From: Lujinxingiaceae bacterium
GTDB lineage: Bacteria; Myxococcota_A; Bradymonadia; Bradymonadales; Bradymonadaceae
Assembly: GCA_013697635.1 (NCBI GenBank)
Contig: JACCWM010000070.1
Span: 1 to 64,000 of the forward strand
Direction: 5' to 3'
Length of the DNA stretch: 64,000 nucleotides
Shown: positions 23,907 to 26,257 of the stretch, piece after piece
How positions within the stretch are numbered: position 1 is the first letter of the stretch
Layout of the letters: each line of letters starts with the position of its first letter
Translations under genes and position numbers: made by a program
Notes under the pieces: model-generated
What the model saw: the letters and a program-made list of their open reading frames with translations, nothing else
Database searches by the model: none
What the model was told of the DNA's origin: nothing

Positions 23907-24155
23907 TCAGCCCTCTTTTGCGGGGTCGAGCCCATCGATCACGGCCTTGACCTTCATCTCCGTGTCTTGAATCTTCTTGCGACACATCTGCAACAAGAAG
24001 GCGGCGCGCTCGACCTTGACCGCGAGCTCGTCGAGGTCGACGTGGTCGCCCTCAATCTCGGCCAGAATGCGCGAGAGCTCTTCCATCGCCTCGCGGTACT
24101 TGAGGCCGCCGGCTTGCTCGTCGACTGGCTCTGCCTGGTTCACTTTGTCGGCCAT
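23907..24155 (-). CDS. xseB: Exonuclease VII small subunit
   Basis: An 82-residue helical protein matching XseB: an N-terminal helix (YREAMEELSRILAEIEGDHVDLDELAVKVERA) followed by a second helix (LLQMCRKKIQDTEMKVKAVI). XseB decorates the XseA coiled coils to form the single-strand-specific nuclease. It lies 24 bases downstream of xseA on the same strand, as in most bacteria. Confidence 0.92.
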   Translation of the reverse strand: MADKVNQAEPVDEQAGGLKYREAMEELSRILAEIEGDHVDLDELAVKVERAAFLLQMCRKKIQDTEMKVKAVIDGLDPAKEG

Positions 24156-24179: not shown

Positions 24180-25916
24180 TTACTCGTCGGGCACACGCTT
24201 GACGCTGATTGAGCCGTCCGCAAGCCTTACGTCGAGGAGCTGGTCCATTGCTACGTCCTCGCTGGAGCGCACCAGCTTGCCACGGCTACGAAGGATTGCA
24301 AAGCCGCGTTCGAGCACGCGCTGGGGATCGAGCAGGCGCAGGTTGTGCGCGGCGTGCTCGAGCTCCTCGCTTCGCCGGGCGAGGGCCATGCGCGCCTGCG
24401 GGCCAAGACGCGCCGCGGCGGCCTCGACACCCTCGCGTCGACGCCCGATCAGGCGAAACAGGCGCGCCTCGTCAAGCTGCTCGCGGCCGTGGCGCACCTC
24501 GTGCTCGGCGCGCTCCACACAGGCCCGCGCCCGTGCACTGATCTGCTCGCCAGAGATCTCCACACGCAACGAATCCTTGGCAATCCGTCGCCTGGCGCCC
24601 TGGGCGATACGCGCGCTGAGTTGGGCTGTGCTCGCTCGCTCGTCGACGAGGCGAGCGTTGACGCTGCGCTCGAGGCGCGCCGATTCTCGCAACAACAGGC
24701 TCTGCGCTGCCAGCACCTGGGCCGTGGCCCGCACACCCATGTGTTCGACGGCGGCCTCGGCGCCGGCCAGAAATTGGCCCACGCGCGCGATTAAAAGCTC
24801 GGCTGCGGCCGTGGGCGTCTTGGTCGAGTGCGCAATGAAGTCGAGCAGGCATTGATCGCGCTGATGGCCCACACCGCAGATCACCTTCACCGGATGCAAA
24901 CACACCGCCTCGCCGATCGCCTCGGTATCGAAGTAGGCCAGATCCGAGCGCGAGCCGCCGCCGCGCACGATCGCCACCACGTCAAAAGCGGCCGCCCGCC
25001 TGGCAAAATAATCGAGCGCCTCCAACACCGAGGCCTCCGTGTTGTGGCCCTGCACGCTGGCGTGATGCGTCGTCAGCTCAAAACCAAGCCCCGAGAGCCT
25101 CAGACCATGCACGAAGTCGTTGTACGCGTCGCTCTCATGGCTCGTGATCAGCCCCACGCGCAGCGGGCACACGGCGAGCTCGCGCGCCATGTTCTTGCCC
25201 TCGATGCCTCGCGCCTCCAGCGCCCGAAACACTCGCTCGCGGTTCATCTCCAGCTCGCCGGCCGTATACGACGGATCGATATCGGAGACGATCAGCTGGT
25301 AGCGCCCGTTTTGCGGATAGAGCTCGACGCGGGCCTTCAAGCGCACGGCCAGGCCGTCCCGAAGCCGTATCGACTGCGGCAGCGCAGCCAGGGTCGCCTC
25401 GATGCGCCGCCTGTCCTCCTCGAACATCACGGCCTTGATCCGCGCGATCTCAGATGCCCCGGCGTAGGGCCGCTCGGCCAGATCGAAGAAGCTCGTGCGC
25501 TGATTGCCGGCGGCATTCTTATCGTAGTCCTGCAGCTCGCCGACGATCCACAGATCGTCTTTGAAGTGATCCCGCAGCACCGCGCGCGCGGCCTGGTTGA
25601 GCTTGGAGACGGTATAGGTGTCGGCCGGCACCGGAGTCGCCAGCCCCGCCACGCTCGAGAGCGCCGGCGGCGAGGGCGCCAAAGACTGGCCCGCCGACTC
25701 GCAGTAGGTGCGAAGCTCCACGGAAAGTTTGAAGTGGTGGCCTTCGAGCTGCTCGAGCACGTAGGCCAGATGCTGCAGCGGCACGAACCAGGCCTTCGAG
25801 TTGGCGTCCCAGCGCCGCTCCGGAAGGTTTCGCACCGTATTAACCAGCTCGCGCTCGTAGGGAAAGCTGATGCGCAGGGTGCGCTCGGCAAGCTCGATGT
25901 CGATCATTCGTGCCAT
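24180..25916 (-). CDS. xseA: Exonuclease VII large subunit with N-terminal HARP-like module
   Basis: A 578-residue protein. From about residue 101 it is typical XseA: an OB-fold (YTVSKLNQAARAVL, WIVGELQDY), then the catalytic domain with GLITS, IVRGGGSRSDLAYFD and the HPVKVICGVGHQRDQCLLDF-like segment, and a long Arg/Glu/Ala-rich coiled coil. Family members are usually about 400-460 residues. The extra ~75 N-terminal residues carry SFPYERELVNTVRNLPERRW followed by D-x3-K-x-W, a pattern like the HARP domain of SMARCAL1 proteins. ATG 25916 is chosen because it opens this module and lies 5 bases after the upstream gene's stop. Confidence 0.9.
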   Translation of the reverse strand: MARMIDIELAERTLRISFPYERELVNTVRNLPERRWDANSKAWFVPLQHLAYVLEQLEGHHFKLSVELRTYCESAGQSLAPSPPALSSVAGLATPVPADTYTVSKLNQAARAVLRDHFKDDLWIVGELQDYDKNAAGNQRTSFFDLAERPYAGASEIARIKAVMFEEDRRRIEATLAALPQSIRLRDGLAVRLKARVELYPQNGRYQLIVSDIDPSYTAGELEMNRERVFRALEARGIEGKNMARELAVCPLRVGLITSHESDAYNDFVHGLRLSGLGFELTTHHASVQGHNTEASVLEALDYFARRAAAFDVVAIVRGGGSRSDLAYFDTEAIGEAVCLHPVKVICGVGHQRDQCLLDFIAHSTKTPTAAAELLIARVGQFLAGAEAAVEHMGVRATAQVLAAQSLLLRESARLERSVNARLVDERASTAQLSARIAQGARRRIAKDSLRVEISGEQISARARACVERAEHEVRHGREQLDEARLFRLIGRRREGVEAAAARLGPQARMALARRSEELEHAAHNLRLLDPQRVLERGFAILRSRGKLVRSSEDVAMDQLLDVRLADGSISVKRVPDE

Positions 25917-25921
25917 GTTCG

Positions 25922-26257
25922 TCAATCCCCGCCGGCCGTACAAGCCCCGCCCGCCACGCCCTCGCAGTGGCCAACGGAGTCGCCCGGAATCTCGCAAGTG
26001 CTGCACGTTTCGCTCTCGGCGCACTGGGCGTCGCGCTCGCAAGGCGCCAGGCATGTGCGCTGGAAGCAGACTAGGCCCTCGTCGCAGTTGACGTGGGCGT
26101 CGCACTCGGCCGTCTTGACGCAGGCCAAGCTGGCGAGCACCAAAAAGAGCAAGACGATAAGGCCTCGGACGGCTCGACAGGGGGCAAGCGCGCGGCTACA
26201 TTGCCCGCTTCGACTTACGCCCTCGATACGATGGATTCGATATGCTTCGCGCGCCAT
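25922..26257 (-). CDS. Small cysteine-rich putative lipoprotein
   Basis: A 111-residue protein. A hydrophobic segment ends at a probable lipobox (LASLAC, Cys46), followed by about 65 residues with nine Cys in paired spacing (CDAHVNCDEGLVC, CERDAQCAESETC), resembling the small Cys-rich modules of Myxococcota lipoproteins. The only canonical start is ATG 26257, which makes an unusually long Arg-rich leader and overlaps the divergent sppA start by 16 bases, so the true start may be non-canonical. It precedes xseA by 5 bases. Confidence 0.5.
   Translation of the reverse strand: MAREAYRIHRIEGVSRSGQCSRALAPCRAVRGLIVLLFLVLASLACVKTAECDAHVNCDEGLVCFQRTCLAPCERDAQCAESETCSTCEIPGDSVGHCEGVAGGACTAGGD

What the first reader, a model, noticed from the sequence alone, without database searches (positions are those of the whole stretch)
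25692..25916. HARP-like module fused to exonuclease VII large subunit
XseA here has about 100 residues before its OB-fold. The first 75 carry a pattern I associate with the HARP domain of SMARCAL1-type annealing helicases: F-x-Y-x-x-E-L-V, then N-L-P-x-R-x-W-D-x3-K-x-W. Conventional XseA proteins start almost at the OB-fold. HARP modules target branched or replication-fork DNA, so this fusion could direct the nuclease to forks or annealed junctions. I do not know of a described HARP-XseA fusion.
Basis: partly seen in the sequence, partly recalled or inferred. Interest (0 to 1): 0.68.

Follow-up and report, generated by a model that had tools for sequence, protein, structure and literature searches.

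The report
HARP module fused to exonuclease VII
In the bacterial order Bradymonadales and in some Planctomycetota, the DNA-trimming enzyme exonuclease VII carries at its front end a small DNA-recognition module otherwise known from the human fork-repair protein SMARCAL1, which suggests that the enzyme is guided to branched or partly single-stranded DNA.

Summary
The 578-residue XseA (24180-25916, minus strand) has about 98 residues before its OB-fold. Residues 1-75 form a folded, conserved domain. A profile of 25 such domains finds one solved structure in the PDB significantly: the SMARCAL1 HARP domain (4o66, E = 3.6e-7). Of 25 members, 22 hit Pfam HARP at E <= 1, and two members checked exceed its curated cut-off. 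The window's own copy alone is sub-threshold (20-21 bits, cut-off 25). The AlphaFold model (pLDDT 88.6) ranks 4o66 first and XPB damage-recognition domains next in Foldseek-PDB.

The fusion is neither an oddity nor confined to Myxococcota. It occurs in 24 of 26 genomes of the order, in other families of the class, and in about 30 of 392 sampled Planctomycetota. It is usually the only XseA, has intact catalytic residues, and is followed by xseB wherever enough downstream DNA was held. A tree of the XseA core, without the domain, puts all fused proteins in one clade (99/98): one old gain.

Most likely the module is a tethered binder of DNA junctions that delivers branched or gapped DNA to the nuclease. 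That function is inferred; the homology is shown. I found no published description. Verdict: new variant of a known kind.

The parts
24180..25916 (-). xseA, exodeoxyribonuclease VII large subunit with N-terminal HARP domain, 578 aa
   Evidence: ORF and translation; TIGR00237 xseA 283 bits, cut-off 180; PF02601 E 1.3e-62
25692..25916 (-). HARP-family domain, residues 1-75
   Evidence: Pfam HARP 20-21 bits alone; family profile to 4o66 E 3.6e-7; AF2 pLDDT 88.6 and Foldseek top hit 4o66
25749..25874 (-). stretch aligned to the Pfam HARP profile, residues 15-56
25788..25790 (-). W43, invariant Trp of the (K/R)-x-W motif, aligned to the Trp of the SMARCAL1 HARP sequence ...FTKTWDF...
   Evidence: invariant column in A1; alignment to 4o66
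25620..25691 (-). flexible linker, residues 76-99, variable in length and sequence
   Evidence: pLDDT below 50 for residues 78-94; 27-40% identity
25275..25616 (-). OB-fold domain (PF13742), residues 101-214
   Evidence: E 1.9e-17
24201..25190 (-). Exonuc_VII_L (PF02601), residues 243-572: catalytic domain, coiled coil and C-terminal strands
25116..25118 (-). D267, equivalent of E. coli XseA D155
   Evidence: alignment to 8txr, invariant in A4
24963..24965 (-). R318, equivalent of E. coli XseA R205
24864..24866 (-). H351, equivalent of E. coli XseA position 238 (Ala in the 8txr chain sequence)
24855..24857 (-). D354, equivalent of E. coli XseA D241
23907..24155 (-). xseB, exonuclease VII small subunit, 24 nt behind xseA
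   Evidence: PF02609 E 7.4e-12
25922..26257 (-). upstream ORF (111 aa, Cys-rich, lipoprotein-like) whose stop lies 5 nt before the xseA ATG; likely same transcript, not part of the fusion
   Evidence: sequence

Best explanation
[quoted passage not shown] It belongs to an old XseA subfamily that gained the domain once. SHOWN: homology, fold ranking, conservation, gene order with xseB, intact catalytic residues, single clade. INFERRED: the domain binds junctions between single- and double-stranded DNA (forks, flaps, gaps), as in SMARCAL1. Because it is tethered beside the OB-fold (several copies in the multimeric holoenzyme), it recruits or orients such DNA so that the single-stranded arm enters the nuclease site. 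This would turn a general single-strand exonuclease into one that prefers fork, flap or gap intermediates.
For: Profile of 25 domains against the PDB: 4o66 E 3.6e-7, only significant hit. Pfam HARP matched by 22 of 25 at E <= 1, best 7.3e-8; the domain of L022 scores 32.3 bits and the complete protein of L061 26.3 bits, both above the cut-off of 25. AF2 domain model pLDDT 88.6. Foldseek-PDB ranks 4o66_A and 4o66_C first (probability 0.98), then XPB damage-recognition domains, among them the forked-DNA complex 6p4f further down. Foldseek-viral: 'HepA-related protein' of Bacillus phage vB_BcoS-136, E 3.7e-5. A scan with patterns from the domain alone brought back SNF2 helicases of Solirubrobacterales besides fused XseAs. 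24 of 26 genomes of the order carry it; it is in Planctomycetota; it is usually the sole XseA. XseB follows in every fused locus with enough downstream DNA. Fused XseAs form one clade, 99/98, on a tree made without the domain. Literature: HARP domains are portable; fused to other SNF2 proteins they confer annealing activity (PMC4035279, citing Ghosal 2011), and HARP is named as important for fork reversal (PMC4666394). ExoVII degrades single strands from both ends and is proposed to remove flaps at fork fusions (PMC6393302).
Against: The window's own copy is below Pfam's HARP cut-off (20-21 bits against 25). The Foldseek-PDB match to 4o66 is not significant alone (E 0.03, TM 0.47-0.54, rmsd 7.6 over 53 columns). 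DUF5710 and XPB-DRD are also related, so the wider superfamily is sure but a specific SMARCAL1-like DNA preference is not. SMARCAL1 HARP domains also take part in protein contacts (BRG1, PMC9243424). No biochemical data exist for this protein.
Confidence: 0.72

Rival explanations
1. The domain is HARP-related but acts as a protein-protein or assembly module: it contacts another replication protein or stabilises and gates the ExoVII oligomer near its OB-fold, without recognising DNA structure.
For: SMARCAL1 HARP domains also mediate interaction with BRG1 (PMC9243424); the domain precedes the OB-fold.
Against: The nearest relatives found sit on DNA-acting enzymes: SNF2 helicases, XPB, apparent tyrosine recombinases (by inspection).
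Confidence: 0.15
2. A generic DUF5710/XPB-DRD-like DNA-binding wing that only raises affinity for DNA, with no junction preference; 'HARP' would overstate the specificity.
For: DUF5710 matches 13 of 25 members, and an f4 member better than HARP does; XPB-DRD structures follow in Foldseek.
Against: HARP matches 22 of 25 and is the only significant PDB match by sequence.
Confidence: 0.2
3. The N-terminal extension is not translated, or is a chance resemblance with no function.
For: The window copy alone is sub-threshold in Pfam.
Against: Protein-level conservation equal to the OB-fold across genera, presence in 24 of 26 genomes of the order and in a second phylum, confident fold.
Confidence: 0.02

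Closest known systems
Exonuclease VII (XseA-XseB; E. coli structure 8txr)
   Same: OB-fold, residues D155/R205/H238/D241 (here D267/R318/H351/D354), coiled coil, C-terminal element, xseB next to xseA.
   Different: About 90 extra N-terminal residues holding a HARP domain plus flexible linker; divergent XseA subfamily (284 bits for the whole frame against TIGR00237, versus roughly 340-505 for most Planctomycetota XseAs).
SMARCAL1 HARP domain (4o66, PF07443)
   Same: Sequence profile (E 3.6e-7), shared motif Y-x-x-E-L-x(7)-L-P-x-R-x-x-D-x3-K-x-W, predicted fold.
   Different: Attached to a nuclease instead of a SNF2 ATPase; a single copy; no motor in the protein.
XPB damage-recognition domain (2fwr, 6p66, 6p4f)
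   Same: Second-best fold matches, rmsd 2.7-3.4 over about 65 columns.
   Different: No significant sequence match of the profile; internal in a helicase.
DUF5710 (PF18974)
   Same: Shares the R-(W/F)-(D/N)-x3-K-x-W hairpin; matches 13 of 25 members at E <= 1.
   Different: Below its cut-off in the members checked; in the window copy it covers 13 residues only.

Membership tests
HARP domain (PF07443) | Score above the curated Pfam cut-off (25 bits) | tested here: inconclusive
   Window copy 16.6-21.1 bits, not met; met by close relatives: L061 complete protein 26.3 bits, domain of L022 32.3 bits.
HARP domain (PF07443) | Sequence homology to the solved SMARCAL1 HARP domain | tested here: met
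   Profile search E 3.6e-7, sole significant PDB hit.
HARP domain (PF07443) | HARP fold | tested here: inconclusive
   4o66 ranked first in the PDB (probability 0.98) but E 0.03 and rmsd 7.6; HARP-annotated phage protein E 3.7e-5, TM 0.62.
HARP domain (PF07443) | Binding of branched or fork DNA / annealing activity | not testable with these tools
   Needs biochemistry.
SMARCAL1/ZRANB3 annealing helicase | SNF2 ATPase in the same protein | tested here: not met
   Only OB and Exonuc_VII_L follow; not a member of the helicase family.
Exonuclease VII | XseA equivalog score and intact catalytic residues | tested here: met
   TIGR00237 283 bits against 180; D267, R318, H351, D354 invariant.
Exonuclease VII | XseB partner | tested here: met
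   PF02609 ORF 24 nt downstream; same order in relatives.

The most novel reading that the evidence does not exclude
A distinct, structure-directed class of exonuclease VII: multiple HARP modules per holoenzyme capture replication forks, flaps or gaps and feed the single-stranded arm to the nuclease, replacing the general ExoVII as the cell's only copy. HARP would then be a mobile bacterial and phage DNA-recognition module, joined to helicases, nucleases and recombinases, and not a SMARCAL1-specific invention.
Probability: 0.45. Interest if true: 0.7.

Novelty: new variant of a known kind. Interest (0 to 1): 0.56.

Why it matters
HARP is known mainly as the part that gives SMARCAL1-type motors their fork and annealing specificity. 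Here evolution has placed it, once and long ago, on a nuclease with no motor, and kept it as the main ExoVII of a whole order. That makes two questions directly testable: whether a HARP domain alone suffices to direct an enzyme to forks, and what ExoVII, whose natural substrate is still debated, really works on.

Tried and rejected
Single-copy Pfam and PDB searches gave only suggestive values (HARP E 4e-4; 4o66 E 0.035); a family profile was needed. The viral-contig scan with the domain found no relative. The divergent N-termini of family f5 could not be shown to be HARP (hhalign probability 9%). The idea of an isolated fusion in one genome was rejected. The idea of several independent fusions was rejected by the tree: 2 changes in all, the second being L025, whose N-terminus looks like a decayed copy. 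The idea that the fused XseA is a paralogue beside a normal one was rejected for most genomes; G725 is an exception, with two conventional copies besides the fused one. No paper in the held library joins 'exonuclease VII' and 'HARP domain'. The primary HARP structure paper and Ghosal 2011 are not held.

Full report
THE OBSERVATION. The ORF 24180-25916 on the minus strand encodes a 578-residue XseA (TIGR00237 283 bits). Pfam places the OB-fold at 101-214 and Exonuc_VII_L at 243-572. The E. coli enzyme of known structure, 8txr, aligns its residue 9 with our residue 100. An xseB gene follows after 24 nt, and a small Cys-rich ORF ends 5 nt before the xseA ATG, so the genes look like an operon.

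IS IT HARP? Searched alone, the N-terminus gives HARP at E 4e-4 (20.2 bits, cut-off 25), DUF5710 at 0.008, and the SMARCAL1 HARP chain 4o66 as best PDB hit at E 0.035. This is suggestive only. I collected the same region from relatives and aligned 25 (A1). The columns read roughly F-x-Y-(D/E)-x-x-L-V-x-x-V-(R/K)-x-L-P-x-R-x-(F/W/Y)-(D/N)-x3-(K/R)-x-W-x-V-P, with W43 and F62 invariant. The A1 profile hits 4o66 at E 3.6e-7, the only significant entry in the PDB. 22 of 25 members match Pfam HARP at E <= 1, best 7.3e-8. One complete protein (L061) carries HARP, OB and Exonuc_VII_L all above their curated cut-offs.

FOLD. AlphaFold2 on the domain with 15 sequences gives mean pLDDT 88.6, strands and helices in the order b-b-a-b-b-a-a. 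Foldseek ranks 4o66_A and 4o66_C first in the PDB with probability 0.98 but E 0.03; XPB damage-recognition domains come next. Against predicted viral proteins six matches pass E 0.001, among them one annotated 'HepA-related protein'; DUF5710 and MutS domain I entries appear lower. In the full-length model the domain (block pLDDT about 81-91) is joined by a disordered linker, residues 78-94; that model has a low pTM (0.42), so the relative placing of domains is not to be trusted.

SELECTION. Against nine fused relatives, residues 12-63 are 58-63% identical in Bradymonadales and 46-48% in Planctomycetota. The OB-fold is 49-63% and 33-36%, the linker 27-40% and 6-13%, the coiled coil 23-33% and 21-24%. 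The module is kept as strictly as the OB-fold.

DISTRIBUTION. 24 of 26 genomes of the order have the domain, at XseA where the locus is complete. In the phylum 33 of 379 sampled genomes have it, nearly all in f1, f2, f4 and f6. In Planctomycetota 30 of 392 sampled genomes (the two that served as seeds, G058 and G062, among them) have it; all loci examined are fused to XseA except one stand-alone copy (L069/L079) and one cut by a contig end (L095). It is usually the only XseA of the genome. Families f3, f7 and f8 and most Planctomycetota have conventional XseA without it. The group codes f1-f8 carry no names.

ONE ORIGIN. A maximum-likelihood tree of 86 XseA cores, without the domain, places all 48 fused sequences plus one (L025, whose N-terminus looks like a decayed copy) in a single clade with support 99/98; the trait needs two changes, read as one gain and one loss. 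Neither the Myxococcota nor the Planctomycetota sequences are a clade of their own, so transfer between the phyla is likely; direction is not resolved. Unfused sequences were sampled in these two phyla only.

ENZYME. D267, R318, H351 and D354 correspond by alignment to D155, R205, position 238 and D241 of E. coli XseA and are invariant in the fused set. That these are catalytic is my knowledge of the XseA literature (Poleszak 2012, not read). xseB follows xseA in every fused locus with enough downstream DNA.

MECHANISM. Shown: architecture, homology, conservation, intact nuclease, partner. Inferred: in SMARCAL1 the HARP domain gives annealing activity and is portable (PMC4035279, citing Ghosal 2011), and it is named as a determinant of fork reversal (PMC4666394). 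ExoVII degrades single strands from both ends and is proposed to act on flaps at fusing forks (PMC6393302); it is needed for quinolone tolerance in E. coli (PMC5684230). That the holoenzyme is multimeric, with several XseA copies, is from my own knowledge and the four chains of 8txr. The simplest model is a tethered junction reader that brings forks, flaps or gaps to the nuclease and may restrict attack on other single strands. My probability that the domain is HARP-family is about 0.95, and that it confers junction preference about 0.6. Rivals are a generic DNA-binding wing or a protein-contact module.

OTHER CONTEXTS. The domain scan returned SNF2 helicases from Solirubrobacterales/Conexibacter with the same N-terminal module. 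An actinobacterial survey (6 of 296 genomes) found more of these and two frames that by inspection resemble tyrosine recombinases. So HARP-like modules in bacteria appear on several DNA-acting enzymes. A 2022 review states that no SMARCAL1 homologue is known in prokaryotes (PMC9368896), which these helicases may question.

VERDICT. The finding is real and the interpretation of homology is right. It is a new variant of a known enzyme, not a new kind of system. Literature absence is limited to the held open-access library, and domain databases may already list the architecture.

Noticed in passing
L065:2872-5154, L067:2914-5148, L066, L068; also L185-L187: Bacterial SNF2 helicases (Solirubrobacterales, Conexibacter) whose N-terminus carries the same HARP-like module (A1 E about 1e-12) although Pfam HARP does not call it; possible prokaryotic SMARCAL1-like proteins.
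   Followed up: partly
L188:769-2898, L189:1192-1701: HARP-like module in front of what looks, by inspection only, like tyrosine recombinases in two genomes of the actinobacterial phylum.
   Followed up: no
L069:2986-3234 (= L079): Stand-alone HARP-like protein of about 84 aa in a Planctomycetota genome that also has a fused HARP-XseA (L082).
   Followed up: partly
L027-L030, first 70 residues of XseA: Family f4 members (same class) have a form of the module closer to DUF5710 than to HARP, hinting that the two Pfam families are related.
   Followed up: partly
L034-L037, L039: Family f5 XseAs (same class) have a different N-terminal domain with W...DD.G....M..GA.....K.YW....F..I.PLL...GY; relation to HARP not shown (hhalign probability 9%).
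   Followed up: partly
G725 (L126, L131/L177, L178): A genome of the phylum with three XseAs: two conventional and one HARP-fused, the last nesting with family f2, which suggests horizontal gain.
   Followed up: partly
window 24801-24836: Fused XseAs have (I)AxSxKTPTA where E. coli XseA has ADLRAPTPSA, behind the conserved GxGHxxD; a subfamily-specific change near the active site.
   Followed up: no
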